64,000 bases of DNA. Source: Methylomagnum ishizawai (lineage in GTDB: Bacteria; Pseudomonadota; Gammaproteobacteria; Methylococcales; Methylococcaceae). Positions within the stretch are counted from its first letter, which is position 1, and each line of letters starts with the position of its first letter. The position numbers were made by a program, and so were the translations under genes. Under the pieces are notes generated by a model. The model saw nothing but the letters and a program-made list of their open reading frames with translations. It was not told the DNA's origin and ran no database searches. The stretch is from NCBI RefSeq assembly GCF_900155475.1, contig NZ_FXAM01000001.1, positions 1,537,501 through 1,601,500 on the forward strand. The letters run 5' to 3'. Positions 2 through 36,076 of this stretch are shown in pieces.

Positions 2-2866
2 GTGAACCGCGACCGGGCGCGGGAGGACGTGGTGGGGCGGTATCGGCAGTTGTCGGCCTCGGCGTTCTACACCCAGGGCGCGGCGCGGTATTCGGCGCGG
101 TCGCTGTTCGCGTCGGTGGTGCGGTTCGAGGACCGCATCGCGGACCTCGAAACCGCGGCGCTGGAACGCAAGATCAACGACCTGGAAATGGACGCGAAGC
201 AGAAGGCCAAGATCATGGCTTCGCTGCGGAAGAGCCGGCAGTCGCTGCGGGTGCAGGGGCCGTATATCCCGCTGTCGCGGTTCGGGCGGTTCTGGGTGGC
301 CAGCAAGGAGCAGGATAGTTCGGAGTTCGATGTGCCCCTGACGCTGCAAACGCTCGGGAATGGGCGGTTGTTGGTGGCCGGGCGGGAAATGCGGGAGCAT
401 GAGGAGTGGTTGAAGTCCTTGGGCGGGAAATATAGCCGGGCGCGGGGCGGGATGCTGTTCGGGGTGCGGCGGTCGCGGGAGGTGGCGCAGCGCATCCGGG
501 AAAGCGGCCTGCTGGAAAAGACGGCGTATGTGAAGCCGGGCGCGGTGCATTACGAGCGGTTCGAGACTTCGCGGCAGGCGGACGAGCGGATCGCGGAGAT
601 CAAGGCGAACCCGGATTTGGAGTTCCTGGGGCATGGGTTGAACGTGCCGGACGAAAGCCAAATGCGCTTGATCGACCCGGCCTATGTGGCGGAGGTGGAT
701 ACGCTGCTGGCGGGTCTCGGCGAGTCGCCGGAGGTACAGGCGATCCGGGACGCGATGTACCAGGGGTTCCTGCGGCGCTTGCCGGAGGTGTCGGCGCAGA
801 AGCATTGGCTGCATCGGAAGAAGACGCCGGGGTTTTCGCGGGATGTGCTGCGGGCCTTGGCGAGCAAGGCGGTCCACGACGCCCACAATATCGCCAGGGT
901 GAAGCATGGCTATCAGGCGTCCGACGCGCTGGACGAGGCCGAGCAAGCCTTGCGGGCGGCGGGCACCTTGAACAGCTTCGGGGCGGCGGTGGCGAAGCTC
1001 GGGGCGCTGGAGACCTATCAGCGGGATTGGATGGGGGTGCCGAAACTGGATTTCGAGGTGGGCATGGACCGGGTGGAGGATGTGACCGAGCGGAAGCGCA
1101 TCCAGGAGGCCCGGCGGTTGTTCGGGAAGGATTCGGTGGCGCTGGCGCGGGCCATCGCCCGGCAGCGGCGGATTCTCGCGCAGGCGGGTTCGATCCGGGC
1201 CGGGAACAAGGAGCGGGCGGCGGCGCTGGCGCTGGGCGAGATGCGGAAAGCCTACGACGACGCGGCCAATCCGACGATCCACCCGATGGCGCTGAAGCTG
1301 AACGGGCTGGGCTTCGCGATGCACATGGGCATCAGCCCGGCGGCGGCGCTGGTGAACACCTTGCAGACGCCCATCATGACGATGCCGGTGGTGGCGGCGC
1401 GGTTCGGGTTCGGCCCGACCCACGCGGCGTTCGGCAAGGCGCTGGGGGATTTTTTCAAGGGGGCGCGGAACCGGGAGGGGGATATTTCCATCGAGACCGG
1501 CGGTTTGGACGCCATCGAGCAGCGGGCGCTGTACCGGGTGCGGCGGCGCGGGATGCTGGATAAGACCCTGGCGCACGATACCAGCGAACTTTCCAACGAT
1601 CCGGCCTTGCTGATGGCCCCGCGCCGGGCGCTGCGGCGGGTGATGGCGGGAATGTTCCACCATGCGGAGCGCTTCAACCGGGAGGTGTCGTTCGTGGCGG
1701 CGTTCCGGTTGGCGCGGGCGGCGGGGGATGGTTTCGACACCGCGTATGCCTATGCGGAGAAGGTGTTGCATGACACCCATTACGATTATGCCCAGTGGAA
1801 CCGTGCCCGTTTCATGCGCGGCGACTGGCCCAGGGTGGTGTTCCAGTTCAAGCAGTATTCCTTGGGTACCACTTGGCTGTTGACGCGGAATTTCCTGTGG
1901 ACGGTGAAGGAGTTCTTGCGGGCGGCGAAGGGGGAGCAGTCGGTGAAGGACGCCTTCCGGTCGGAAGCCTATAAGACGCTGGCGGGCATCATGGGGATGC
2001 AGATGTTGTTCGCGGGGGCGCTGGGTTTGCCGTTCGTGGGCGGGATCGCGCTGGCGGTGAATCTGGCCGCGAAGGGATTCACCGACGACGACGACGAGCC
2101 GTTCGAGTTCGAGGTGTGGTTCCGGCGCTGGGCGGCGGAGACTTTCGGGGTGGAGGCCGGGAACGCCATCAGCAAGGGGTTGTTCCCCTGGGCGGTGGGG
2201 CAGATTCCGGGGGTTCCGGCGGTGGACCTGCAAGGCAAGCTGTCGATGGCGGATTTGTGGTGGCGGGAGCCGGACCGGGAGCTTGAGGGCAACGATGCGG
2301 CGCTGTTCTGGGGGACGCAGTTCATGGGGCCGACCGCGCAACTGTTCGTGAACGCCTTCGCCACGGCCAAGCTGTGGGGCGACGGCCATCCCTGGCGGGC
2401 GGTGGAGAAGATCGTGCCGTTGAAGGCGGCGGCGGACCTGATGAAGGCTTACCGCTACGCGACCGAGGGGGCGACGACCTTGAAGGGGGACGAGTTGGTC
2501 GAGGACGTGAACGCGGCAGAGGTGTTGGCGACCGCCTTGGGGTTCGCGCCGATGCGGATCGGCGAAACCTACGCGGAGAACCACGCCTATGTGAACGCCA
2601 GCAAGGCGCTACACGAACGGCGGCAGGACATCCTGGACACGGTGGCGCGGGGGCGGATGAAGGACGACCCGGAAGCGCTGGGCCGGGGGCTGGCGGAGGC
2701 GGAAGCCTTCACGGCGAAGCATCCCGATATGGCCATCTCGGGGGGCGACGTGGCGCGGTCGGTGAAGGCGCGGTTGCGGCGGCGGGCATTGACGGAGGGC
2801 GGGCAGTATGTGCCGCCGAAGGAAAGGGAATTGCGGGATCGGTTCCGGTTCGGGGCGACGGAATAG
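2..2866 (+). CDS. PLxRFG-type large polyvalent phage/ICE protein (C-terminal part; 5' end outside window)
   Basis: The frame is open at the left edge and starts with GTG at base 2, so this is probably the C-terminal ~954 residues of a longer protein. Residues 90-95 read PLSRFG, the signature of the PLxRFG family of very long phage/plasmid proteins thought to be delivered with the DNA. Hydrophobic stretches at about residues 656-690 could be membrane-active. The tail (GFAPMRIGETYAENHAY region) resembles a large-polyvalent-protein-associated domain. Bases 474-1603 are nearly identical to 12480-13606 in the second polyvalent gene. The gene ends before a strong hairpin terminator. No enzymatic function can be assigned. 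The PLxRFG assignment rests on motif recall, not a search. Confidence 0.75.
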   Translation: MNRDRAREDVVGRYRQLSASAFYTQGAARYSARSLFASVVRFEDRIADLETAALERKINDLEMDAKQKAKIMASLRKSRQSLRVQGPYIPLSRFGRFWVASKEQDSSEFDVPLTLQTLGNGRLLVAGREMREHEEWLKSLGGKYSRARGGMLFGVRRSREVAQRIRESGLLEKTAYVKPGAVHYERFETSRQADERIAEIKANPDLEFLGHGLNVPDESQMRLIDPAYVAEVDTLLAGLGESPEVQAIRDAMYQGFLRRLPEVSAQKHWLHRKKTPGFSRDVLRALASKAVHDAHNIARVKHGYQASDALDEAEQALRAAGTLNSFGAAVAKLGALETYQRDWMGVPKLDFEVGMDRVEDVTERKRIQEARRLFGKDSVALARAIARQRRILAQAGSIRAGNKERAAALALGEMRKAYDDAANPTIHPMALKLNGLGFAMHMGISPAAALVNTLQTPIMTMPVVAARFGFGPTHAAFGKALGDFFKGARNREGDISIETGGLDAIEQRALYRVRRRGMLDKTLAHDTSELSNDPALLMAPRRALRRVMAGMFHHAERFNREVSFVAAFRLARAAGDGFDTAYAYAEKVLHDTHYDYAQWNRARFMRGDWPRVVFQFKQYSLGTTWLLTRNFLWTVKEFLRAAKGEQSVKDAFRSEAYKTLAGIMGMQMLFAGALGLPFVGGIALAVNLAAKGFTDDDDEPFEFEVWFRRWAAETFGVEAGNAISKGLFPWAVGQIPGVPAVDLQGKLSMADLWWREPDRELEGNDAALFWGTQFMGPTAQLFVNAFATAKLWGDGHPWRAVEKIVPLKAAADLMKAYRYATEGATTLKGDELVEDVNAAEVLATALGFAPMRIGETYAENHAYVNASKALHERRQDILDTVARGRMKDDPEALGRGLAEAEAFTAKHPDMAISGGDVARSVKARLRRRALTEGGQYVPPKERELRDRFRFGATE

Positions 2867-2965: not shown

Positions 2966-3820
2966 TTAGGGTTTGGGCTTGGGTTTCAGGCTGAGTTTTG
3001 GTTTGCCGAGCGGGGACGGGGTGGGTTGGGGCGGTTGCGCCGGGGGCTGCGGCTGCGCCGGGGCGCGGGACTTGGCGACCGTGACCACCGGGACGGGTTT
3101 GCCGGAGGTGGCCGGGGCGGGTTTTTGGTCCGGGGCGGGCGCGGGCGTGGCTTGGGGCTTGGGCCGGTTGGGCGGCTTCTTGTCCTTGACCCGGATGTGG
3201 GCCGAGTCGATCCGGGGTTCCTGGGCGTCCAGCTTGATGACGCCTTCGACCACGACCACGGGTTGCCCGGCTTCGCGGAAGGCCGCGACCGCCTTGCGGA
3301 AGCTGGTGGGGTTCAGGTGGGCGGTGAATTCGCGTCCGTTGATATCGACGGCGATGGGCACGGTGGCCGCGCCTTCGGTGGCGTGGTCCAGGCATTGGCG
3401 GAACGAGTCGTTTTGCAGGGTGATGGCGAGCTGGGTTTGGACGGCTTTCATGCGGAGGGTCTCCAGGATGCGGGCGTGGGCTTTTTTGCCGTGGCGCTGG
3501 CGGCGGCGGCGGTAGGGCTTGCCGGGGTGTTCGAGGTGGTGGGCGGCTTTGTGGCGTTCGGCGGGCGACACCGGGCCGACGGGTTGGCCGTCGAGGCCGA
3601 TGCGGGGCTGGGTGCCGTCGGCCAGGGCGCGTTGGTAGGCGGCGCTGGCGGTGTAATGGGCCAGCGCGGCGCGGACGGCTTCGAGGTCGTGGCCCTGGGC
3701 GACGAGGGTTTCGCGGATGCCGATGGCGAGGGGCAGCACGGCGTCCGGGTCGTCGGGGAAGGCCAGGGGGTATTGGCGGCGCAGGGTCGCCAGCAGGGGG
3801 GGTGGCGTGGTGGGGTCCAT
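2966..3820 (-). CDS. ProQ/FinO-domain RNA-binding protein with proline-rich tail
   Basis: This 284-residue protein starts at MDPTTPPP, chosen for the GAGGAGA ribosome site just upstream; the open frame itself extends further. The N-terminal ~110 residues have the ProQ/FinO pattern (LRRQYPLAF...PLAIGIRETL...ALAHYTASAAYQ...ALADG). FinO/ProQ proteins are RNA chaperones that stabilise sRNA-mRNA duplexes. A middle domain (about 120-200) includes FTAHLNPTSFRKAVAAFRE. The last ~80 residues are a low-complexity Pro/Lys-rich tail, probably disordered. It lies 89 bp downstream of the KilA-N gene on the same strand, and two hairpins in that gap (3848-3864 and 3874-3900) may control it. Plasmids and phages often carry such proteins to tune antisense control, which fits the adjacent c4-like RNA; that link is inference. 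Confidence 0.8.
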   Translation of the reverse strand: MDPTTPPPLLATLRRQYPLAFPDDPDAVLPLAIGIRETLVAQGHDLEAVRAALAHYTASAAYQRALADGTQPRIGLDGQPVGPVSPAERHKAAHHLEHPGKPYRRRRQRHGKKAHARILETLRMKAVQTQLAITLQNDSFRQCLDHATEGAATVPIAVDINGREFTAHLNPTSFRKAVAAFREAGQPVVVVEGVIKLDAQEPRIDSAHIRVKDKKPPNRPKPQATPAPAPDQKPAPATSGKPVPVVTVAKSRAPAQPQPPAQPPQPTPSPLGKPKLSLKPKPKP

Positions 3821-3909: not shown

Positions 3910-4719
3910 TCAACGGGCTTGGCTCCTGCCGTACCAGGGGCGGCCGGTGCGGGCTTCGAGGGCGTGGACGGCGTCCATCGCCGCCGCGACGCCGATTTCC
4001 GCCGTGCGGACCTGGGCGCAGAGGGTGTTCAGTTCTTCTTCGGTCAGCGTGACCCACCCGGCGGTTGCCGGAGGCGCGGCCCGCGTGGTTTGGGCGGCGG
4101 CGCGGAGCAGGTAGTAGTCGCGGGGTCCGTCGCGGCCTTCGCGGCAGACGGCCTTCTTGCGGATGAAGCCGAGCCGGTGGAGCAGCTTGCCCATGGGGGC
4201 GTGGGCGCGGCGGTGGGGGTCGGTGTCGGGGTCGCCGAGGAACATGGCGATGAGGTCGCGCACCGAGACGTAGGCCAGCCCGGCGACGTGGGCGGCGATG
4301 CGGGTTTCCAGGTCGGGCGGGATGTCCACGAAGGGCGCGGGGGCGTCGGGGAGGTAGCGCAGGGCGTTGCGCGGTTGGGTCGCCAGCGCGTCGTAGGCAC
4401 GGATGACCTTGAGGTGGAAGGCCGGGCTGATCCACATAGCGTAGCTGTAGACCAGTTCCTTGACGACGAAGGTGCCGCCGTACCTACCAGCTTTGGACTC
4501 GATGGGTTTAATTCCGGGAATTCCCGGAATTAGATTTTCAGCTGAATCCATGTGTTCGCGCTCAAGCTCAGCAATCAAATCCTGAGTTTGTTGGATGCGT
4601 AACCAGTCCGATGGCTGATGCTTTTTCTTGCCGCCGCTGGCCTTGTGAAGATCGTTGAGGGAGTAACGCCCTTCGGCGTCTTGATGGATGCGGGTGTCCG
4701 CGATGATGAGGTTAGCCAT
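3910..4719 (-). CDS. KilA-N domain protein, phage antirepressor-like
   Basis: The 269-residue protein starts at MANLIIADTRI after an AGGAGG site. The N-terminal ~105 residues match the KilA-N DNA-binding domain (GRYSLNDLHKASGG, KHQPSDWLR, GGTFVVKELVYSYAMWISP, FHLKVIRAYDAL). The C-terminal part (VRDLIAMFLGDPDTDPHRR, LLHRLGF) looks like a winged-helix-type region. KilA-N proteins are typically phage antirepressors or lethality functions. The leader carries a c4-like antisense RNA system. The frame is open for 52 further codons upstream (to 4875), and that extension (APVRVAGFLSPGF...SSKRKVTASNP) resembles small Icd/Ash-type phage leader peptides, so an in-frame leader peptide or longer form is possible. 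Confidence 0.82.
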   Translation of the reverse strand: MANLIIADTRIHQDAEGRYSLNDLHKASGGKKKHQPSDWLRIQQTQDLIAELEREHMDSAENLIPGIPGIKPIESKAGRYGGTFVVKELVYSYAMWISPAFHLKVIRAYDALATQPRNALRYLPDAPAPFVDIPPDLETRIAAHVAGLAYVSVRDLIAMFLGDPDTDPHRRAHAPMGKLLHRLGFIRKKAVCREGRDGPRDYYLLRAAAQTTRAAPPATAGWVTLTEEELNTLCAQVRTAEIGVAAAMDAVHALEARTGRPWYGRSQAR

Positions 4720-4782
4720 GATGGCCTCCTGAGCTGGGTTTGAGGCCGTCACTTTTCTTTTCGACGAGAATTTGGTGACGGA

Positions 4783-4846
4783 CGATGCGTGGGGTCGAAA
4801 ACCAGGGCTCAGGAACCCGGCCACCCTTACAGGTGCCCACGCATCG
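4783..4846 (-). promoter_or_regulatory. Target hairpin of c4-like antisense RNA in KilA-N leader
   Basis: On the minus strand, CGATGCGTGG (4846-4837) can pair with CCACGCATCG (4792-4783). The loop contains CCTGAG (4813-4808) and CCTGGTTTTCGACCC (4806-4792). These are complementary to CTCAGG (4918-4913) and GGGTGTCGAAACC (4940-4928) in the upstream RNA, allowing one-base bulges. This two-block complementarity is the a/b versus a'/b' layout known for c4 RNAs of phages P1 and P7. Confidence 0.7.
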
Positions 4847-4860
4847 CCGTCATGACTCGG

Positions 4861-4960
4861 GCGCATCGCGGACATGAAAAATGCCCGATGCGCGGAATTT
4901 GGGGGCTATGCGCCTGAGCTAAGTCCAGGTTTCGACACCCGGCCCCGGATGCGTCCGGGG
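4861..4960 (-). ncRNA. c4-type antisense RNA of a phage antirepressor operon
   Basis: Starting about 7 nt after a good promoter, the minus-strand transcript has a CCCCGGAC/ATCCGGGG hairpin. Two blocks follow (GGGTGTCGAAACC and CTCAGG) that are complementary to the KilA-N leader 110-130 nt downstream in the same transcript. A hairpin with stem GCGCATCG/CGATGCGC (4893-4861) comes next. This is the architecture of c4 antisense RNA, which is processed from the leader and blocks antirepressor translation by pairing near its translation start. The exact ends are inferred. Confidence 0.72.
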
Positions 4961-4966
4961 TTCAAC

Positions 4967-4996
4967 AGCGTAGGCGCGTTTTTGGGCGGTTGTCAA
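4967..4996 (-). promoter_or_regulatory. Sigma-70 promoter of c4-like RNA / KilA-N transcript
   Basis: On the minus strand a perfect TTGACA (4996-4991) is followed after 18 bp by TACGCT (4972-4967). Initiation would fall near 4960, just before the first c4 hairpin. Confidence 0.65.
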
Positions 4997-5123
4997 TGGT
5001 GAATATTTACGTTGACGGGGAGGATGGGGGTGTTGAAGGATTGGTGGGCGGCATAAAGCCCTAGATTGATGGGGTATGCTGGAAAAAATTAATAATCGCC
5101 AATATAATATTATTGGATTCTCT

Positions 5124-6860
5124 ATGAAAATTCAGCAAATTATTATTCATAACTTTCGATCTGTGCTTGATGCTGACATTGAGGTGCATGATTACATGTT
5201 ATTGGTTGGAGCGAACAATGCTGGTAAAAGCACTATTTTGAATGCATTGCGAGTTTTTTATGATGATATAAAATGGTCAACAGAAGACTTCCCAAAAACG
5301 GAAACGCTTGATAACGAGTCATGGGTACAGCTCAAATTTAAATTAGATGATGAGGAATGGGTTGGACTTGCAGATGAATATAAAAGAGGGGTAACCAGCC
5401 AATGCTTAACAGTTCGTCGCTATTTTAAATCTGATGAAAAAGGTAGAGTTCAAAAGGAGCAAAGTAATATTTATGGTTTCGTAAATGGAGAAATCAGCAA
5501 AGAGCTATTCTATGGCGCAAAAAATGTCGGAACAGCTAAGGTCGGTCAGGTTCTATATGTGCCAGCGCTAGCTAACCCTACCGATCAAACAAAAATGAGC
5601 GGTCCATCACCTCTTCGCAACATGCTCAACTTTTTATTAAAAAAAGTCGTCTCTAAAAGCGAAGCTTTTAAAGAGGTTACTGCTGCCTTTGAAAAACTTA
5701 ACGAAGAGGCCAGAAAGGAAAATGGTTTTTTAACAGAAATATCAAATCCGCTTAACGTCGCAATCGAAGCGTGGGGCATTAAAATTGATCTCTCGGTCGA
5801 CTCTGTCGCGCCAGAAGATATTTCAAAATCATTGGTTAGATTTGCATTTTTAGATGCATCGTTAGGTGATACTGGTTTTGATCTTGATCGCTACGGACAT
5901 GGGTTTCAACGTTCTGTAATTTATGAGCTAATTCGGTTGGCACCGACATTCAAAGATGAGAAAAAAACCAGTAAAAAGGAGTTTAATCCATTATACAATC
6001 TAGTGCTTTTTGAAGAGCCAGAGGCATTTTTGCATCCAAGCCAGCAGGAAAGCATGGCTTATCACTTGCGCCGTCTAAGTGCAGAAAGTGGACAACAGGT
6101 ATTTATCACTACCCACTCACCGATCTTTGCTGGCAAAGCTGCTCAGCAAATTGGTCAGATTATCCGTGTTCAACGCAGTAATGGCGTGACCAAAATTTTC
6201 CAACCTAAAGGAACACAGATAAATGAAGTATTCGATCAAGGTGGTGAATTGCTTATAGCCCTACAGGCATTCGTTGCAAATAAAACCATACATGACAATA
6301 AAAAAAGTCGTGCACGTAAAATGATTGAAAACCCACCTGAAGCTGATATTGCTATTCAAGAGGAACGCTTTCGCTTTCAACTTTGGCTGGATAGTGAGCG
6401 GTCTTCCTTGTTTTTTGCGGACAAAGTGCTTTTAGTGGAAGGTGCGACAGAGCGAGCTTTATTTAACTATCTTCTCGCCAATGATTGGCATGATCTTAGT
6501 ACGCAACGCATCTGTATTGTTGATGCTCTTGGGAAATTTAATTTCCATCGATTTATGGCGTTATTTAAAGTTTATGGCATCCCTCACGGTGTCATGCTGG
6601 ATGATGACAACAACAATGGAAAAGATGCCGCTTTCCATGGTGCTATAAATGATTTAGTTGGAGCGTCGGCTAATTTGCATACGCTCGCCACACCAGTAAT
6701 GTTTCCTATATGCCTGGAAAATTTTTTAGGATTACAAACACCAGATAGAGATGATAAAAAACCCTTGGAAATACTGAAAGTAATTGCATCTGGACAAGTC
6801 GCAACTAACAGTCTCTTGGCGCTTCGAGAGAAGTTTTGTGAGGCACTTGCAATTGCTTAA
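5124..6860 (+). CDS. OLD-family ATP-dependent nuclease (AAA ATPase + TOPRIM)
   Basis: A 578-residue protein from ATG 5124 (MKIQQIIIHNFRS), the normal beginning of the family; an in-frame ATG at 5076 would add 16 residues. Visible elements are Walker A GANNAGKST, the Walker B/signature region LVLFEEPEAFLHPSQQ, the H-loop ITTHSPIFAGKA, and C-terminal TOPRIM motifs (VLLVEGATERAL; DALGKFNFHRF; MLDDDNNNG). OLD proteins are nucleases often found in phage defence, alone (class 1) or with a UvrD-like helicase as in Gabija. No helicase gene lies nearby, so class 1 is favoured. The gene is strikingly AT-rich against G+C-rich neighbours, which indicates recent acquisition. Confidence 0.85.
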   Translation: MKIQQIIIHNFRSVLDADIEVHDYMLLVGANNAGKSTILNALRVFYDDIKWSTEDFPKTETLDNESWVQLKFKLDDEEWVGLADEYKRGVTSQCLTVRRYFKSDEKGRVQKEQSNIYGFVNGEISKELFYGAKNVGTAKVGQVLYVPALANPTDQTKMSGPSPLRNMLNFLLKKVVSKSEAFKEVTAAFEKLNEEARKENGFLTEISNPLNVAIEAWGIKIDLSVDSVAPEDISKSLVRFAFLDASLGDTGFDLDRYGHGFQRSVIYELIRLAPTFKDEKKTSKKEFNPLYNLVLFEEPEAFLHPSQQESMAYHLRRLSAESGQQVFITTHSPIFAGKAAQQIGQIIRVQRSNGVTKIFQPKGTQINEVFDQGGELLIALQAFVANKTIHDNKKSRARKMIENPPEADIAIQEERFRFQLWLDSERSSLFFADKVLLVEGATERALFNYLLANDWHDLSTQRICIVDALGKFNFHRFMALFKVYGIPHGVMLDDDNNNGKDAAFHGAINDLVGASANLHTLATPVMFPICLENFLGLQTPDRDDKKPLEILKVIASGQVATNSLLALREKFCEALAIA

Positions 6861-9328: not shown

Positions 9329-12300
9329 ATGAATTGCCTGGAAAAACACTTGGACGCCATGGTTGCCCAGTCCCGCATTGCCCCACAGGACCGGGACGCC
9401 CTGTTGCAAGCCGCCGAAGCCCACCGGGCGGGCGGGATGGTCTGGGCCGAAGCCCAGGTCCGGGCCATCGATGATCGGCTGGAAGCGTTGCGGGCGGAGC
9501 GGGCGCGGGCCGGGGTGGCGGCGGGGTCCGCCGACGCGGGTGAGCATCCGGCGATGGCGCGGGGGGAAGGCAAAACCGGCGAGGCTTCGCGCCACAGGTT
9601 TTCCTGGGAGGCCAGCCAGGGCGGCGGCACGCCCGAATCCATCCGCGCCGAGTTGGTCCGCCGTTTCGGGGGCCGATTGATCCGGCGGCTGGAGCGGGCG
9701 AAGCGGCTCCACATCCTGGATGCCTGGCAGGCGCTGCGCCGGTTCGCGCCCGAGGCAGGACCTAACGACAAGGCGCTGTTCAAGGAGGGCCGGGTGTACT
9801 TGGTCGCGCCGAATATCCGGCCCGGCGATGCCGTTGGGGTGTTCCTGCACGAGACCGGGGTCCATGGCGGGCTGGTGGACTGGCTGGGCGGGCGCTTCCC
9901 GGAATTCGCGGCGCGGTTCCATGAACTGGTCGGGGCCGGGGACGCGGCGGCGGTGCGGGCCGAGGCGCAGGTGCAACGGTTATTGCGCGACAACGCGCTT
10001 AACCCCGCCGATGCCGACGAAGAGCGCATCGCCTATCTGGTCGAATACGTGACCCGGTTGGACGGCAAGGGCAAGGCCAAGCTGTCGGCGCGGGTGCGGG
10101 CCTGGGCACGGGAGGTGGTGGCGGCCTTGCGGGCGGCGCTGTATGCCTCGCCGTTCGGGCAATGGCTGCAACGGCGCGGGTTCGAGTTGACGGCGCGGGA
10201 TTTCGCGGCCTTGGCGCGGGCGGCGGTGCGGCGGGATGCGGCTTCAATCTCCACGGATTCGCGGAGATTGGCTAGCCAGTTCAACCTCGCGCCGATGTTC
10301 TACTCGGCGTTGACCCGCGCCGTGCAGGCCATGAAGCAGCCGAAGGCACCGGGTAGCCAGTGGGCGGCGATGCTCGACAAGGCTCCCGGCGTGAAGGTGG
10401 AGGAAGTCGAGTGGTCGGGGGTGAAGGAATGGCTGGCCGGGCGCGGGGGTTCGGTGGGCAAGGCGGAATTGTTGGATTTCCTGGCGCAGAACGAGATCAG
10501 GGTGGAGGAGGTTCAATCGCCGGAAAACGCCTCTATCGGGACCATGGATTTTCGGAAATACCAAGTGCCGGGCGGCGGCGGGTATCGGGAAGTGTTGTTG
10601 ACCTTGCCGCCCAAGATGCGGGATGCGTGGGAGGTTTTCGATCCCCGTTCGGGTGAAGTGGTGGATACCTTTTCGACCGAGGCATCGGCCAGGGATCATG
10701 TGGATGATCAGAACCGGCGCGGGGCCACCTTGGATTATGGCCGTATCCAAGTGCCCGATATTGCGCTGTCCTATCGCTCCGGCCATTGGCGGGAACCCAA
10801 TATCCTGGCCCATATCAGGTTGAACGAACGGGCGGACGCCGAGGGGCGGCGGGTGTTGTTCCTGGAAGAGGTGCAGAGCGATTGGCATCAAGAGGGGCGG
10901 AAGCGGGGGTATAAGCCGAGCATTCAGGCTTTTCGGGTTGAGCGGAAGGATGATGGCGATAGTTTCGGGGAGTGGGCCGTTATCGGGCCGGATGGCGAAT
11001 ATGGGCGCTATATGCGTGAGCAGGACGCGCAGCGCAGGGTAGATGCCGATAATTCGAGGCACATACAAAAGTTCGTACCCGATGCGCCGTTCAAGCAATC
11101 GTGGGCGCTGTTGGCGATGAAGCGCATGATCCGCTACGCCGCCGAAAACGGCTTCGACCGGATCGCGTGGGCACCGGGGGCGGTGCAGACGGAACGGTAT
11201 GAGCTGAACCGGCAGGTGGACAGCATCCTCGTGAACGCCGACCCGGATGGCGGGCGGAGGCTGGACATCGATATGGTTGGGCGGCGGGAGTACGAGGCGC
11301 TGGTGAGTTTGACGGTCGGCCCGGACGGGAAGGTGTTGGCCGGGGATATGGCCGAGGCGGTCGGGAAGCCGCTGGACGAGGTGGTCGGCAAGGAGATGGC
11401 CGAGCGGGTGATGGCGGTCGAGGGGGTGAAAACCTTCGAGGGCGACGGGTTGCGCGTCGGCGGCGAGGGGATGAAAGGGTTCTACGACAGGATTCTGCCC
11501 GCCGAGGTGAACAAGTACGTCAAGAAGTGGGGGGTGAAGGTGGTGCCGGTGGAGTTGGGCCGGGAGGTCCGCCCGGAACCTTGGGAACTGGACGACGATG
11601 AGGCAACTCCCGCGCCGCGCTATGGGCGAACCCTGGTCGCGCAGGGCGTGGACATCACGCCCGCGATGAAGCTGGCGGCGCTGGAGGAAGGACAACCGTT
11701 GTTCAGCCGCTCCGCGATGAAGGACATCGACGCCAACATCCGCAGGGGGCGGGACGCCCTGGCGAAGGCCGTCTTGGAGAAAACCTCCGTGCATCGCGCC
11801 ATGTTCCGCAATGGCCTGGGATGGGTCGATTTCGTGTGGGGCAAAACCGGGCGGGTGAAGCCTTCGGGCAAAACAGTCGGCGGCATGGGGTTGGCCCATA
11901 TCCTGGAAGCCAGGGGGCGCAAGGATGGAATGGCAGAGGCGGAGGCGTTGCGCCTGTTCGATCATTTGATCGAAACGATTGCCGCCGGTACGGAAATCCG
12001 TAGGAACGAAACCGGCGGTTCTATCAGGGCTGTGATCGCCAAGGGCGGCTACGAGGCCGTGCTGGTCCGTAACCGTGGAAGCAATGCGTGGGTTTTGAGC
12101 GGGTGGCGGGTGAATCCCGGTGCATCCGTGGAGGCCAATGACACCGACGGCGCTACGCATATCGCGGCTGACTCTAGCGACCATAATATGGGCGCGGGAT
12201 TCGATTCAACTATAGGCCCGCATGATGGGATTGACAATATCCGTTTCAGCCGGGCCGATCAGGAACCCGACCCCGCCGCAGTCCAGTCTTCCGCACGGGA

Positions 12301-13606
12301 AATGGGCCGCGCTGCGCGGATCATGCGGCGGGCAGGGCGGGATGTCGTGGATGGCTTCGATGGGATGGCCGACGACGCCAAGGCCGTGGCGCTGGGCGGC
12401 TTCACGGTGCGGATGAACGCGGAACTGGCCCAGGGATACCTGCCGGTGCTGGAACAGCGCTTCGTACCGGCGATGGCGGCGCGGGAGGTGGCGCAGCGCA
12501 TCCGGGAAAGCGGCCTGCTGGAAAAGACGGCGTATGTGAAGCCGGGCGCGGTGCATTACGAGCGGTTCGAGACTTCGCGGCAGGCGGACGAGCGGATCGC
12601 GGAGATCAAGGCGAACCCGGATTTGGAGTTCCTGGGGCATGGGTTGAACGTGCCGGACGAAAGCCAAATGCGCTTGATCGACCCGGCCTATGTGGCGGAG
12701 GTGGATACGCTGCTGGCGGGTCTCGGCGAGTCGCCGGAGGTACAGGCGATCCGGGACGCGATGTACCAGGGGTTCCTGCGGCGCTTGCCGGAGGTGTCGG
12801 CGCAGAAGCATTGGCTGCACCGCAAGAAGACGCCGGGGTTTTCGCGGGATGTGCTGCGGGCCTTGGCGAGCAAGGCGGTCCACGACGCCCACAATATCGC
12901 CAGGGTGAAGCATGGCTATCAGGCGTCCGACGCGCTGGAAGAGGGCGAACAGGCGCTGAAGGCGGCGGGCACCACCCATGGCATGAAGGCGGCGGTGGCG
13001 CGGCTGGCGGCGCTGGAAACCTATCAGCGGGATTGGCAGGCGGCGTCGAAGTTGGACTTCGACGTGGGGATGGACGCCCTGGAGGACGCCGGGCAGCGGA
13101 AGTTGATCCGGGAGGCGCGGCGGTTGTTCGGGAAGGATTCGGTGGCGCTGGCGCGGGCCATCGCCCGGCAGCGGCGGATTCTCGCGCAGGCGGGTTCGAT
13201 TCGGGCCGGGAATAAGGAGCGGGCGGCGGCGTTGGCGCTGGGCGAAATGCGGCGGGCCTACGACGACGCGGCCAATCCGACCATCCATCCCCTGGCCTTG
13301 AAGCTGAACGGGTTGGGTTTCGCGATGCACATGGGGATTTCCCCGGCGGCGGCGCTGGTGAACACCTTGCAGACGCCCATCATGACGATGCCGGTGGTGG
13401 CGGCACGGTTCGGGTTCGGCCCGACCCACGCGGCGTTCGGCAAGGCGCTGGGGGATTTTTTCAAGGGGGCGCGGAACCGGGAGGGGGATATTTCCATCGA
13501 GACCGGCGGTTTGGACGCCATCGAGCAGCGGGCGCTGTACCGGGTGCGGCGGCGCGGGATGCTGGATAAGACCCTGGCGCACGATACCAGTGAGCTTTCC
13601 AACGAT
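9329..13606 (+). pseudogene. Second large polyvalent protein, 3' end removed at an IS66 junction
   Basis: The start ATG 9329 follows GAGG. About 1426 genuine residues precede the junction; after that the frame reads antisense IS66 sequence to 14446. In order: a zincin-like HETGVH motif at residues 174-179 (FLHETGVHGG); a phage domain with LFLEEVQSDWHQEG at ~511-523, a WAPGAVQTERY region at ~611 and FYDRILPAEVNKYVKKWG at ~717; a region at ~815-915 (GWVDFVWG, GMGLAHILEARG, AWVLSGWRVNP) resembling phage Barnase/EndoU/ColicinE5-type nuclease modules; then residues ~1051-1426, shared with the first polyvalent gene. Such multi-domain proteins are proposed to enter a recipient with the DNA. Domain names are from pattern memory. 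Confidence 0.75.
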
Positions 13607-14993
13607 TCTTTTTCCCGACGGCGATGGGGCGGATGGCGTTCTCCACTGGATTGTTATCCACGGGCAAATCGCCGGTCTCGGCATAGCGGACGAGGGCGGG
13701 CCAGCGTTTCAGGGTGTAGTCCAGCGCCTTGGCGGCCCCGGTGCCCGGGGCGGTGCGGGCGCGGGTCTCGGCCAGCCAGGCGCGCAGGGACTCCAGTTCC
13801 GGCAGGGCGCGTTCGGCCCGCAGCCGCTGGCGGGCCGGGATGTCCAGCGACCGGGCCTCGGCTTCGACGGCGTAGAGCTGGCCGATGCGCCGCAACGCCT
13901 CCCCGGCCATGGGGCTTTGGTTGGCTTGGTGGAGTTCGAAGAACTTGCGCCGCGCATGGGCCCAGCAGCCCAGTTCGACGCAGGGCGGGGCCGCTTCCCG
14001 TTCCGGGGCGAACAGCGCCTTGTACCCGGCATAGTCGTCGACCCGCAGGTGGCCTTGCCAGGTGCCGAGGAACGCCCGCGCGTGCCCGCCGCCCCGGCCC
14101 GGCCGGTAGTCGAACACGACGATGCGGGGTCCCGGTTCCAGGTCGTTGCTGCGGTAGGCCCAGAGGTAGGCCTTCTTGGCCTTGCCGCTGCCGGGGTCGA
14201 GTTGCGCCACCGGGGTTTCGTCGGCGTGGAGCATGCCGCCCCGGCGCAGGTGCCAGGCGAGCCGGTCCGCCAGGGGTTGCAGGGCCACGCCGAGGCGGCC
14301 CACCCAGTCGGCCAGGGTCGAGCGCGACAGGACCACCCCGTCGCGGGCGGCGATCTGTTCCAGGCGGTACAGGGGGAGGTGGTCGACGTGCTTGCCGATC
14401 AGCACCCAGGCCAGCAAGCCCACCGCCGCCAGGCCGCCGTCGATGACGGCGGGCGGCACCGGGGCGGCGGCGACGGTTTCGCAGGGGCGGCAGGCATATT
14501 GGGGCCGGATGTGGCGGTGGACGAAGAACCGGGCCGGTTCGACGTCCAGTTGCTCGGTGACGTCCTCGCCGATCAGGACCAGGTCGGTGTTGCCGCAACG
14601 GGGACATTGGCAGGCCTCCGGTTCGTGGCGGTGCTCGATCCTCGGCAGGGGGTCCGGCAACGGCTGGCGTCCGGCCCTCGCGCGCTTCGGCTTGGCGGCG
14701 GCGGGGGCCGCCGCGCCGTCGGCCAGGCGCTCGATCTCCGCCTCCACCGCCGCCGAGTCCTCGTTCCAGGTGTCCTGGAACAGGTTGCGCTGGGTCTGGG
14801 GCAGGGCTTCGCTTTTGACCCCGAAGCGGATCCGCCGCAAATGGGCGAGTTCCAGGGTGAGCGCCTGGATCTTGAGGTCCTTGGCTGCCGACGCCCTTTG
14901 CAACGCCGCGATCATCGCCGCCAATCGGGTTCTGGCGGACGGTTCCAGGTTCAGCAGGTCGAGTTGGGCCAGCGCTTCCATAGCCCCGATCAT
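13607..14993 (-). pseudogene. tnpC: IS66 transposase TnpC, C-terminus missing
   Basis: About 462 genuine residues from ATG 14993. The N-terminal coiled coil (LAAMIAALQRASAAKDLKIQAL), the zinc-finger region (CQCPRCGN) and the DDE core (LHADETPVAQLDPG; DDYAGYKALF; GCWAHARRKFFEL; DNNPVENAIRPIAVGKKN) are all recognisable. The protein ends just after the catalytic Glu region, lacking the usual ~50 C-terminal residues, and the frame then reads through antisense polyvalent-gene sequence to 13461. It is probably inactive. Confidence 0.85.
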
Positions 14994-31177: not shown

Positions 31178-34100
31178 ATGGCCGACCAACTCCCCGAACC
31201 CCGCTTCATCCACCTCCGCCTCCACACCGAATATTCCCTGGTCGATGGCCTCGTCGATGTGAAACCCCTGGTCAAGCGCTGCGCCAAACTGGGGATGCCA
31301 GCAGTAGCTGTGACCGACCAGATGAATCTATTCGCCCTGGTCAAGTTCTACAAGGCCGCGCAGGGCGCGGGCCTGAAACCCATTGCCGGGGCCGATCTCC
31401 TGATCCAAAACGAATCCGACCCGGCCACGCCCTATCTCATGCCGCTGTTCGTGCAGGACGAACAGGGCTACCGCACCCTCACCGAACTCATTTCCCGTGG
31501 CTACCGCGAGAACCAGCACCAAGGCGTGCCCCAGGTCATGGCCGCGTGGCTGGCGGAAAAGAACGCGGGGCTGATCGCCCTTTCGGGTGCCCGCCAGGGC
31601 CAGATTGGTCGGGCGCTGCTGTCGGGCAACCGCGACGAGGCCCGGCGCATCCTGGAACATTGGCTGGGCGTGTTCGGCGACCGCTTCTATCTGGAGTTGC
31701 AGCGCACCGGCCGTCCCGGCGAAGACGACTATATCGAAGGGGCGCTGGCCCTCGCCGTCGAATGCGATGTGCCGGTGGTCGCCACCAACGATGTGCGGTT
31801 CCTCGATGCCAGCGATTTCGAGGCCCACGAGGCGCGGGTCTGCATCAACCAGGGCCGGGTCTTGGACGACCCGCGCCGTCCCCGCGACTACACCGACCAG
31901 CAATACCTAAAAAGCCCGGCGGAAATGGCGGCGCTGTTCGCCGATCTGCCCGAGGCGCTGGAAAACACCGTGGAAATCGCCAAGCGCTGCAATATCCGCC
32001 TGACGCTGGGCAAGAATTTCCTGCCGCAATTCCCGGTGCCGGAGGGCATGACCACCGCCGACTTCTTCGCCGAGGAATCGCGCAAAGGCTTACGGGAGCG
32101 CCTCGCCGTGCGCCCGCCCACCGGCCAGGGCACGCTGGCCCAGCGCACCAAAGCCTACGAAGAGCGGCTCGAACTCGAAATCGGCGTCATTAACCAGATG
32201 GATTTCCCCGGCTACTTCCTGATCGTGGCCGACTTCATCCAATGGGCCAAGCAAAATGGGATTCCGGTCGGGCCGGGGCGTGGTTCGGGCGCGGGTTCCC
32301 TGGTGGCCTATTCGCTCAAAATCACCGACCTCGACCCCATCGAATTCGAGTTGCTGTTCGAGCGCTTCCTGAATCCCGAGCGCGTGTCCATGCCCGATTT
32401 CGACGTGGATTTCTGCATGGACCGGCGCGACGAGGTGATCGCCTATGTCGCCGAGAAATATGGCCGCGACCGGGTCTCGCAGATCATCACCTATGGTTCC
32501 ATGGCGGCCAAGGCGGTGGTGCGCGACGTGGGCCGGGTGTTGGGGCATCCGTATGGTTTCGTGGACCGCATCGCCAAGCTGATCCCGTTCGAGCTGGGCA
32601 TGACCCTGGAAAAAGCCTTGCAGGACAGCGAGGACTTGAAAAAGCTCTACGACGCCGACGAGGAAGTGAAGGCGCTGATCGATCTGGCGCAGTCACTGGA
32701 AGGCTTGACCCGCAACGCCGGCAAGCATGCCGGGGGCGTGGTGATCGCGCCTTCGCAGTTGATCGATTTCAGCCCGCTCTATTGCGAACAGGGCGGCGAT
32801 AGCCTCGTGACCCAGTTCGACAAGGACGACGTGGAAGCGGTCGGCTTGGTCAAGTTCGATTTCCTGGGGCTGCGTACCCTGACCATCATCGATTGGGCGC
32901 TGGAAACCATCAACCAGCAGCGGGCCGCGCAAAAATTGCCGCCAGTCGATATCACCCAAATCCCGCTCGACGACCCCGACACCTACAAACTCCTGAAAAG
33001 CTGCCAAACCACGGCGGTATTCCAGCTCGAATCCCGCGGCATGAAGGATTTGATCCGGCGCTTGCTGCCCGATAATTTCGATGACATCGTGGCCTTGGTG
33101 GCGCTGTTCCGGCCCGGGCCTTTGCAATCGGGGATGGTGGACGACTATATCAACGTCAAGCACGGCAAGCAGAAAGCCGAGTATCCCCATCCCATCCTCG
33201 AACCCATTTTGCAGCCGACCAATGGGGTGATCCTGTACCAGGAGCAGGTGATGCGGATTGCCCAGGATATGTCGGGGTATACGCTGGGCGGGGCGGACCT
33301 ACTTAGGCGCGCCATGGGAAAGAAGAAGGCCGAGGAAATGGCGAAGCAGCGTGATACTTTTGTAGTGGGTGCTGAAAAGAATGGAGTAAACAAGGATATC
33401 GCCAATTTTATATTCGATTTGGTGGACAAATTTTCAGGGTATGGTTTCAATAAGTGCATTATTGGTGACACAGTTATTGTAGAGGCTAATACCGGAGAAA
33501 AAATCACAGTTGAAACGCTTTTTGAAAAACCCAAGAGATTCGCTATACACGCGCTCGATGAAGTCGGAAAATTACGGGTAAGGCCCGTATCCCGCGTGAT
33601 GTGGAATGGACCGAAGCCAGTATTTGAATTGACGACCGCCTTGGGCAAGCGGATTACCGCGACGGGCAATCACCCATTCCGCACCTTGAACGGCTGGACC
33701 CACCTTGAAAACTTGAATGTCGGCGACCGCATCGCCGTGCCCCGTAAACTCCAGGTCGCGGCGGAAAAATCCTGGCCCCGGCATGAGTTGATTACCTTGG
33801 CGGGCCTACTATCGGAAGGCAACACCTGCCACCCCACTTGCCTATATTTTTATGGCAACGAACCCACGTTGGTCGAGGATTTCGCGACCGCCGCCGCACA
33901 ATTCCCGGATTCGGTGGCCCGCGTCTATCCACGCCTCAATAATCGGCTTGAGGTCTGCGTCAGTACCGGGCGGGACACCCGGTTCAAAACGGGGCAGATG
34001 CCTTGGAATGCAAGCCAACCCCAGGTGTCTGGGTGTTTGGCGCTGGTTGCGGAATCCGAGCCGCCACCCAGCAGGAGCGGGGCTTTCCTGTGGGCGGAAA

Positions 34101-36076
34101 GCCTGGGTATTTTGGGCCTAAAAGCCACGCAAAAAGCTATTCCGGCGCAAGTATTCCAACTGTGCGATGCTGATTTGAAGCTGTTTATAGGCCGATTATG
34201 GGCGGGCGATGGTTTTATCGCCACCGAATCCCAAGCGATACCGCCCTATTATGCGACTTCTTCCAGGACTTTGGCCGAAGATGTGCAAACTTTGTTATTA
34301 AGGCTGGGAATCATCAGTCGTATAGAATCCAAGCAATTCAAATATCGCGGCGGCTTGAAGCCGGGATTTGCCGTTTGGTTGCTGGGGGAAAATAGCTTGG
34401 ATGTTTTCGCCAAGGATGTTGTGCCCCATATTGTAGGACGCGATGCCCAGGTCGAGTTATTGCGCGGGCGCTTGGCGGCTACGCAACCCGGCATGACCAG
34501 CAAGGATATTATTCCTGCGGAAGTCCGCGCCTGGGTTGCCGCCGAGCGCATACGGACGGGATTGACTTGGAAGGAATTGGCAGAACGCTCGGGCGTCTCT
34601 ATGAAAGAATTCTTGGGCAAGGGATCGGCGAAGAAGCAGGGATTTCGGCGCTTCACGATAGCGCGTCTGGCCCGGTTTTTAGGGTCGGAGCGGCTCGCGT
34701 CCTTGGCTGGTTCCGATATATTCTGGGACCGTGTGGTATCCATCGAACCCAAGGGAGTTATCAATACCTATGATCTGACGGTCGAAGAGGACCATAATTT
34801 TGTCGCCAACGGGATTATAGTCCATAATTCCCATTCCGCCGCATATGCTTTAGTTTCCTACCAAACCGCCTGGCTCAAAACCCATTATCCCGCCGCCTTC
34901 ATGGCCGCGGTGTTATCCTCCGATATGGACAAGACCGACAAGGTCGTCGTGTTCATCGAGGAATGCCGCCAAATGCGGCTGACCCTGTTGCCGCCCGATA
35001 TCAACCGCTCCGAATTCCGCTTCACCGTGCTGCCCGGCGGCGCGATCCAATACGGCCTCGGGGCCATCAAGGGCGTGGGCGAGAACGCCATCGGCGATAT
35101 CCTGGAAGAGCGCCGCCGCAACGGCCCTTATCAAGACCTCTACGACTTCTGTCAGCGCATCGACCTCAGGAAGGCCAACCGCCGGGTGCTGGAAGCCTTG
35201 ATCCGGGGCGGGGCGCTGGATTCGTTCGACGCCAACCGCGCCCGCCATCTGGCCGAATTGCCCGACGCCCTCAAGGCCGCCGAGCAACACGGGGCCATGG
35301 CCGATTCCGGGCAGGACGATTTGTTCGGCCTGTTGGGCGGCGGCGCGGTCGAGGCGGTGGAAAAGCCGACCCGGCCCGTGGTCCAGGTCGAGCCTTGGAG
35401 CGAGGCCGAGCGGCTCGAACATGAAAAAAACACTTTGGGGCTTTATCTCACCGGCCATCCCATCAGCCCCTACGAGGCGGACATTGTCCAATTCGTCACC
35501 GACCGCCTGGGACCGCTGGCCGAGAAGCACGATAGGAGTCCCGCCACCCCGAGTTGGCAACGCCAGGAAACCAAGATCGTGGTGGCCGGGCTGGTGGTGG
35601 AACTCCGCACCAAGCAGAACAAATCCGGCAAGCGCATGGGTTTCGCGACCCTGGACGACCGCACCGGGCGGCTGGAGGTCGCGGTGTTTTCCGAGGCGTT
35701 CGAGAAATACCGGGATTATCTGGAAAAGGACAGCTTGTTGGTGGCTGTGGGCAACCTGGGCTTTGACGATTTCGCCGGGCAATTGCGGCTGAGCGCCGAG
35801 CGGTTGCTGCGTATCGAGGAAGCGCGGGCCGAATTCGCCAAGCGCCTGACCATCGCCTGGCCGGGACCGGAGACGGCGCTGGCGGTGGACGAATTGCGGG
35901 AATTGCTCGCGCCGCACCGGGGCGGGGCGTGCCCGGTCCTGGTCGAATACCGGGGCCGTTCGGCCCAGGGCTTGATCCAACTGGGGCAGGCGTGGCGGGT
36001 GGTGCCGGGAGCCGAATTGCTGGCCCGGCTGGAAAAGCGGATCGGGGCGGAGCGGGTGAAACTGCTTTATCAATGA
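31178..36076 (+). CDS. dnaE: DNA polymerase III alpha subunit with in-frame intein
   Basis: The 1632-codon frame splits into ~1174 residues of DnaE (E. coli ~1160) and a 458-residue intein at residues 760-1217. The PHP domain (FIHLRLHTEYSLVDGL), catalytic aspartates in MPDFDVDFCMDRRDEV, the polymerase core, tandem HhH region, and OB fold (VVAGLVVELRTKQNKSGKRMGF) are all present. This is the replicative polymerase. The intein is inserted between FNK and SHSAAYALVSY, four residues downstream of the site used by the cyanobacterial split DnaE intein (site memory, not checked). Splicing is required for a functional polymerase. Confidence 0.95.
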   Translation: MADQLPEPRFIHLRLHTEYSLVDGLVDVKPLVKRCAKLGMPAVAVTDQMNLFALVKFYKAAQGAGLKPIAGADLLIQNESDPATPYLMPLFVQDEQGYRTLTELISRGYRENQHQGVPQVMAAWLAEKNAGLIALSGARQGQIGRALLSGNRDEARRILEHWLGVFGDRFYLELQRTGRPGEDDYIEGALALAVECDVPVVATNDVRFLDASDFEAHEARVCINQGRVLDDPRRPRDYTDQQYLKSPAEMAALFADLPEALENTVEIAKRCNIRLTLGKNFLPQFPVPEGMTTADFFAEESRKGLRERLAVRPPTGQGTLAQRTKAYEERLELEIGVINQMDFPGYFLIVADFIQWAKQNGIPVGPGRGSGAGSLVAYSLKITDLDPIEFELLFERFLNPERVSMPDFDVDFCMDRRDEVIAYVAEKYGRDRVSQIITYGSMAAKAVVRDVGRVLGHPYGFVDRIAKLIPFELGMTLEKALQDSEDLKKLYDADEEVKALIDLAQSLEGLTRNAGKHAGGVVIAPSQLIDFSPLYCEQGGDSLVTQFDKDDVEAVGLVKFDFLGLRTLTIIDWALETINQQRAAQKLPPVDITQIPLDDPDTYKLLKSCQTTAVFQLESRGMKDLIRRLLPDNFDDIVALVALFRPGPLQSGMVDDYINVKHGKQKAEYPHPILEPILQPTNGVILYQEQVMRIAQDMSGYTLGGADLLRRAMGKKKAEEMAKQRDTFVVGAEKNGVNKDIANFIFDLVDKFSGYGFNKCIIGDTVIVEANTGEKITVETLFEKPKRFAIHALDEVGKLRVRPVSRVMWNGPKPVFELTTALGKRITATGNHPFRTLNGWTHLENLNVGDRIAVPRKLQVAAEKSWPRHELITLAGLLSEGNTCHPTCLYFYGNEPTLVEDFATAAAQFPDSVARVYPRLNNRLEVCVSTGRDTRFKTGQMPWNASQPQVSGCLALVAESEPPPSRSGAFLWAESLGILGLKATQKAIPAQVFQLCDADLKLFIGRLWAGDGFIATESQAIPPYYATSSRTLAEDVQTLLLRLGIISRIESKQFKYRGGLKPGFAVWLLGENSLDVFAKDVVPHIVGRDAQVELLRGRLAATQPGMTSKDIIPAEVRAWVAAERIRTGLTWKELAERSGVSMKEFLGKGSAKKQGFRRFTIARLARFLGSERLASLAGSDIFWDRVVSIEPKGVINTYDLTVEEDHNFVANGIIVHNSHSAAYALVSYQTAWLKTHYPAAFMAAVLSSDMDKTDKVVVFIEECRQMRLTLLPPDINRSEFRFTVLPGGAIQYGLGAIKGVGENAIGDILEERRRNGPYQDLYDFCQRIDLRKANRRVLEALIRGGALDSFDANRARHLAELPDALKAAEQHGAMADSGQDDLFGLLGGGAVEAVEKPTRPVVQVEPWSEAERLEHEKNTLGLYLTGHPISPYEADIVQFVTDRLGPLAEKHDRSPATPSWQRQETKIVVAGLVVELRTKQNKSGKRMGFATLDDRTGRLEVAVFSEAFEKYRDYLEKDSLLVAVGNLGFDDFAGQLRLSAERLLRIEEARAEFAKRLTIAWPGPETALAVDELRELLAPHRGGACPVLVEYRGRSAQGLIQLGQAWRVVPGAELLARLEKRIGAERVKLLYQ
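33455..34828 (+). other. DnaE intein with LAGLIDADG homing endonuclease
   Basis: It starts with the nucleophile Cys (CIIGDTVIVEANTGEK) and ends VANGIIVHN before the +1 Ser of SHSAAY. Block B is ATGNHPFRT (TxxH-type) and block F is INTYDLTVEEDHNF. Between the splicing halves are two dodecapeptide-like motifs, LAGLLSEGN and IGRLWAGDGFI, both with an acidic residue, so the endonuclease may be active. A helix-turn-helix-like stretch (TWKELAERSGVSMKEFLGKG) lies near the end. Its lower G+C than the flanking exteins indicates horizontal entry. Confidence 0.93.

What the first reader, a model, noticed from the sequence alone, without database searches (positions are those of the whole stretch)
4719..4996. 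c4-type antisense RNA circuit controlling a KilA-N antirepressor-like gene
The KilA-N leader carries a strong promoter and a short structured RNA with two blocks complementary to a downstream hairpin in the same transcript (GGGTGTCGAAACC and CTCAGG versus CCTGGTTTTCGACCC and CCTGAG). That is the P1/P7 c4 layout. Here it sits in a G+C-rich, probably methanotroph genome beside a ProQ/FinO RNA chaperone gene on the same strand, which might modulate this antisense pairing.
Basis: partly seen in the sequence, partly recalled or inferred. Interest (0 to 1): 0.72.

Follow-up and report, generated by a model that had tools for sequence, protein, structure and literature searches.

The report
C4 RNA switch silencing KilA-N gene
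A prophage gene in a methane-eating bacterium sits behind an RNA off-switch of the kind known from phage P1; the genome holds at least 13 such switches, nearly all with their own pairing code, and close copies change that code at three places in step.

Summary
Rfam's C4 antisense RNA model hits window 4857..4771 (minus strand) at 59.1 bits against a cut-off of 45. It missed the downstream a2/b2 sites, which put b2 on the KilA-N Shine-Dalgarno.

The layout matches annotated P1 immI site by site. Best reading: C4 pairs with a2/b2 and blocks KilA-N translation, probably also the ProQ-like gene behind it.

Three results go further. (1) The genome has 13 C4 cassettes before KilA-N, Bro-N, AntA, Rha and unassigned genes. 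(2) Near-identical cassettes differ at the b 'address' in b1, b' and b2 together, including this cassette and its closest homologue found. (3) Rfam sRNA-Xcc1, treated in papers read here as a Xanthomonas virulence or integron sRNA, shows the same layout and pairing, including before symE.

ProQ is linked only here and in one sister genome, so a general ProQ role is unsupported. No expression data were available.

The parts
4967..4996 (-). sigma70-type promoter TTGACA-18-TACGCT; predicted start near 4960
   Evidence: promoter-like sites enriched in this stretch of 190 homologous leaders
4925..4960 (-). leader hairpins; a1 (GTCGAAA, 4936-4930) sits in the loop of the second one
   Evidence: fold; a1 complementary to C4 a'
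4913..4919 (-). b1 decoy site GCTCAGG, complementary to C4 b'
4876..4907 (-). candidate attenuator: AGCCC ... GGGCA followed by TTTTT, between b1 and C4
   Evidence: sequence; T-run at this place in 68% of 190 cassettes vs 4% of shuffles
4861..4893 (-). hairpin across the T-run that would form after read-through
   Evidence: fold
4771..4857 (-). C4 antisense RNA; b' loop CCTGAGC 4813-4807, a' TTTTCGAC within 4802-4791
   Evidence: Rfam RF01695 59.1 bits
4757..4765 (-). a2 target site GTCGAAAAG
4746..4781 (-). possible competing stem CCGTCAC (4781-4775) with GTGACGG (4752-4746), enclosing a2 and using the base of the C4 outer stem
   Evidence: cognate >=7-nt complementarity in 37% of 190 cassettes vs 8% non-cognate; control arm 2% vs 2%
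4725..4734 (-). b2 target site GCTCAGGA overlapping the Shine-Dalgarno AGGAGG
3910..4719 (-). KilA-N antirepressor-like gene (269 aa)
   Evidence: Pfam PF04383 E=7e-23; PHROG 129 transcriptional regulator, PHROG 2127 anti-repressor
2966..3820 (-). ProQ/FinO-domain gene, same strand, about 90 nt behind KilA-N
   Evidence: Pfam PF04352 E=2e-18

Best explanation
This is a C4-type antisense module of a prophage or prophage remnant. One promoter near 4996 reads a leader with decoy sites a1/b1, an attenuator, the C4 RNA, target sites a2/b2 and then kilA-N and the proQ-like gene. C4, processed from this transcript as in P1 (inferred), pairs through a' and b' with a2 and b2. The b2 site lies on the kilA-N Shine-Dalgarno, so pairing blocks translation, and by polarity probably expression of the proQ-like gene too (inferred). 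The terminated a1/b1 RNA would act as a decoy for C4, as proposed for IsrK (inferred). When C4 is absent or titrated, KilA-N is made and counteracts a prophage repressor (inferred from family). Specificity is set by the short a and b addresses: nearly all co-resident C4 modules carry different b addresses and should mostly ignore each other.
For: Rfam C4 above cut-off. All four pairing sites in P1 order. Cognate versus non-cognate test over 190 cassettes from the same family, order and class, exact matches of at least 7 nt: b'/b2 83% vs 6%, b'/b1 70% vs 10%, a'/a2 82% vs 5%, a'/a1 89% vs 10%. Among the 13 C4s of this genome the cognate a1/b1 is the strongest target for 13 of 13 and the cognate a2/b2 for 9 of 13; no permutation of 20000 reached either total. 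The closest homologue of this cassette in the sister genome (85% identical over 267 nt) differs in b1, b' and b2 at once while both keep complementarity.
Against: No transcript, processing or repression data. The leader is below the isrK and c4-a1b1 cut-offs. There is no icd-like first gene as in P1. Antirepressor function of this KilA-N protein is inferred from family only. Predicted a2/b2 energies rank the cognate first for only 9 of 13 C4s.
Confidence: 0.9

Rival explanations
1. IsrK-like activation: the short a1/b1 RNA is the main trans-acting regulator and opens the inactive read-through mRNA, with the C4 region mainly a structural partner.
For: The leader scores 24.6 bits against isrK and ends in an attenuator. 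IsrK of Gifsy-1 was reported to activate the AnrP antirepressor this way (PMC4825925).
Against: isrK score is below its cut-off of 50. The a2/b2 sites lie on the start region, which fits direct repression by C4, and cognate complementarity is as strong at a2/b2 as at a1/b1 over 190 cassettes.
Confidence: 0.2
2. The module is a decayed relic: the RNA structure persists but kilA-N is no longer regulated or functional.
For: The locus lies at a mosaic place with a transposase, a DarB-like frame and a GC drop nearby. The sister genome has a truncated KilA start behind another C4.
Against: All four pairing sites, promoter, attenuator and an intact 269-aa reading frame are kept. The address changed in step at three sites relative to the sister copy, which points to selection.
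Confidence: 0.1
3. A C4-like RNA taken over to regulate host genes in trans, as suggested for Acinetobacter Group 1 sRNAs.
For: Many copies per genome, variable loops (PMC5320573).
Against: In 83% of 190 cassettes b' has a 7-nt or longer match at the start region of the gene directly downstream. The two C4 loci read from one Acinetobacter genome also show adjacent target sites.
Confidence: 0.05

Closest known systems
C4 antisense RNA and immI of phages P1/P7 (Rfam RF01695)
   Same: Same order promoter, a1, b1, C4, a2, b2 on the ribosome binding site, antirepressor-type gene; P1 scores 68.8 bits and this locus 59.1. Differences of about 4 nt between P1 and P7 are reported to restrict cross-reactivity (PMC5320573).
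   Different: No icd; KilA-N follows directly and a ProQ-like gene follows it. At least 13 modules share one genome. In near-identical relatives it is b that differs, whereas the Acinetobacter paper stresses a'.
IsrK / AnrP of Gifsy-1 (Rfam RF01394)
   Same: Leader RNA ending in an attenuator before a C4-like region and an antirepressor gene. In two Vibrio-group loci isrK and C4 both pass their cut-offs before KilA-N.
   Different: Here the isrK score is only 24.6 bits and there is no orf45.
sRNA-Xcc1 (Rfam RF02221)
   Same: Same place in front of KilA-N genes and the same a1/b1, a2/b2 complementarity.
   Different: Different sequence and fold; Rfam gives it no clan. Many Xanthomonas-family copies lack a2/b2.
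sar RNA of P22-like phages (Rfam RF00262)
   Same: An antisense RNA next to a KilA-N antirepressor gene (Emek ant).
   Different: Encoded on the opposite strand; unrelated family.
C4-like 'Group 1' sRNAs of Acinetobacter baumannii
   Same: Many C4-like RNAs in one genome (PMC5320573).
   Different: There interpreted as taken over for host targets; here each has an adjacent cognate target.

Membership tests
C4 antisense RNA (RF01695) | covariance model score above cut-off | tested here: met
   59.1 bits vs 45
C4 antisense RNA (RF01695) | a' and b' complementary to a2/b2 at the start of the downstream gene | tested here: met
   8 and 8 nt exact, b2 on the Shine-Dalgarno
C4 antisense RNA (RF01695) | second pair of sites a1/b1 upstream in the same transcript | tested here: met
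   7 and 7 nt exact
C4 antisense RNA (RF01695) | antirepressor-type gene downstream | tested here: met
   KilA-N; PHROG anti-repressor; function itself not tested
C4 antisense RNA (RF01695) | processing from the precursor, 5' end by RNase P | not testable with these tools
   needs RNA ends
isrK (RF01394) | covariance model score above cut-off | tested here: not met
   24.6 vs 50 bits
c4-a1b1 (RF03163) | covariance model score above cut-off | tested here: not met
   14.6 vs 46.7 bits, although a1/b1 complementarity is present
ProQ-dependent regulation | ProQ-like gene regularly linked to C4 modules | tested here: not met
   found at 2 of the C4 loci, which are orthologous; 2 ProQ genes in the genome

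The most novel reading that the evidence does not exclude
C4 and sRNA-Xcc1 RNAs are one kind of swappable RNA switch with a fast-changing address. Addresses diversify at three sites in step, so that co-resident prophage modules are insulated and phages become heteroimmune. Copies that lost the target but keep a covarying decoy, common in the Xanthomonas family, act in trans against phages of the same address.
Probability: 0.3. Interest if true: 0.7.

Novelty: new member of a known kind. Interest (0 to 1): 0.5.

Why it matters
The single locus is a new member of the P1 C4 kind. The genome around it is a natural experiment: 13 C4 modules in one cell, some almost identical except for the address, which lets one ask how many bases make two RNA switches independent and how such a code changes at three sites without losing control. 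The link to sRNA-Xcc1 offers a concrete mechanism for an sRNA that papers read here discuss as a virulence or vesicle RNA with predicted host targets, and for its place in front of symE in integron cassettes.

Tried and rejected
Within-genome versus between-genome cross-recognition at matched similarity: no clear difference, so I do not claim that living together selects for different addresses. Addresses vary everywhere.

ProQ as a general partner: rejected.

Close phage relatives of the leader DNA: none convincing, one 55-nt match at E=0.3. KilA-N relatives in isolated phages: six loci checked, none with C4, one with sar.

Chen et al. 2011 on sRNA-Xcc1 is not held.

I did not scan phage collections for targets of the orphan sRNA-Xcc1 addresses: with 7-nt addresses chance matches would be many.

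Full report
Observation. Rfam C4 matches 4857..4771 at 59.1 bits (cut-off 45). Upstream lie a1 (GTCGAAA, 4936-4930) and b1 (GCTCAGG, 4919-4913). The C4 loops are b' (CCTGAGC, 4813-4807) and a' (in GTTTTCGACCCC, 4802-4791). Downstream lie a2 (GTCGAAAAG, 4765-4757) and b2 (GCTCAGGA, 4734-4727), the latter on the AGGAGG before the KilA-N start codon. Shuffling the targets never gave all four matches together in 5000 trials; single matches alone are weaker evidence.

Comparison with P1. The P1 record annotates a1, b1, C4, a2, b2 and icd in this order. My complementarity computation, applied to P1 with the same settings, returns TTGACAG for a1 and a2 and GTTAGTG(A) for b1 and b2, the annotated sites.

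Generality. C4 passes its cut-off in 18 of 38 genomes of the family, 126 of 301 of the order sample and 24 of 369 of the class sample. I collected 191 cassettes; 190 could be tested. Exact complementarity of at least 7 nt is found in 83% (b'/b2), 70% (b'/b1), 82% (a'/a2) and 89% (a'/a1) of cognate pairs, against 6, 10, 5 and 10% of non-cognate pairs. Promoter-like sites and a T-run between b1 and C4 are likewise enriched.

One genome, many switches. This genome has 13 C4 hits above cut-off, including three in tandem within 3 kb. Ten proteins read behind them are KilA-N (one), Bro-N (three), AntA (two), Rha (two) and two without a Pfam match. Two more cassettes (B, H) carry near-copies of genes in this set, and the last (F) has only a 30-aa frame behind its b2. 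The cognate a1/b1 is the best target for all 13 C4s and the cognate a2/b2 for 9 of 13. By exact match, 4 of 132 ordered non-cognate pairs reach 7 nt; cassettes E and H share one address.

Address changes in step. Cassettes A and B lie in 5.27 kb of 99.1% identity. Two positions of the address differ, each at b1, b' and b2, with pairing kept in both. Among 37 pairs of C4s whose bodies are at least 90% identical, 21 no longer recognise each other, and in 19 of those both members keep a b1 copy of their own address; the pairs are not independent. The window cassette and its closest homologue in the sister species show the same. A test of whether co-residence drives this was negative.

Modular exchange. 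In the sister species the KilA C-terminal part and ProQ are nearly identical, but the KilA-N gene there follows a different C4-like RNA with its own a and b sites, and a C4 cassette with a truncated KilA start lies just upstream. I read this as exchange of the RNA switch in front of one gene; it rests on one locus.

sRNA-Xcc1. In four viral contigs and one Oceanospirillum locus, Rfam sRNA-Xcc1 occupies the C4 place before KilA-N. Over 31 loci the cognate 7-nt rates for b'/b2, b'/b1, a'/a2 and a'/a1 are 48, 55, 52 and 45% against 7, 8, 7 and 5%. The window genome has one sRNA-Xcc1 hit above cut-off and two below; the latter two precede AntA and Bro-N genes. In the Xanthomonas family, two loci precede SymE genes (Pfam) with complete a2/b2, while most of the 30 loci read keep a covarying a1/b1 (83%) but show little a2/b2 signal. 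Papers read here describe this RNA without a tested mechanism. I did not find the link to C4 in them; the original 2011 paper was not available.

What is not shown. No RNA was measured. Repression, the decoy role of a1/b1, RNase P processing, the antirepressor activity of KilA-N and any effect of ProQ are inferences.

Noticed in passing
L360, L361 (RNA next to position 1500 of each): sRNA-Xcc1 with complete a1/b1 and a2/b2 directly before SymE toxin genes (Pfam PF08845): suggests C4-type control of symE.
   Followed up: partly
L357-L359, L362-L368, L370, L372-L386: Xanthomonas-family sRNA-Xcc1 copies that mostly keep a covarying a1/b1 decoy but show little a2/b2 signal: orphan antisense RNAs of unknown role.
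   Followed up: partly
L130 (G559 C9:1700-3092): Four C4 RNAs within 1.4 kb in a 1.5-Mb genome, three sharing one address, unlike the diverse addresses elsewhere.
   Followed up: no
L113, about 860-1140 of the reverse complement: A C4-like RNA not reported by the Rfam family searches before KilA-N in the sister species, with its own a1/b1 and a2/b2.
   Followed up: partly
window 31178-36076: 1632-aa DNA polymerase III alpha-like frame with extra matches to unrelated phage families at about 759-867 and 1171-1230: possible intein(s).
   Followed up: no
window 5076-6860: OLD-like nuclease (AAA_15 plus TOPRIM) in an AT-rich patch (38-44% GC), transcribed away from the C4 promoter.
   Followed up: no
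window 2-2866 and 9329-14446: Two frames share long near-identical stretches; the first matches DarB-like antirestriction families and the second overlaps a transposase gene.
   Followed up: no
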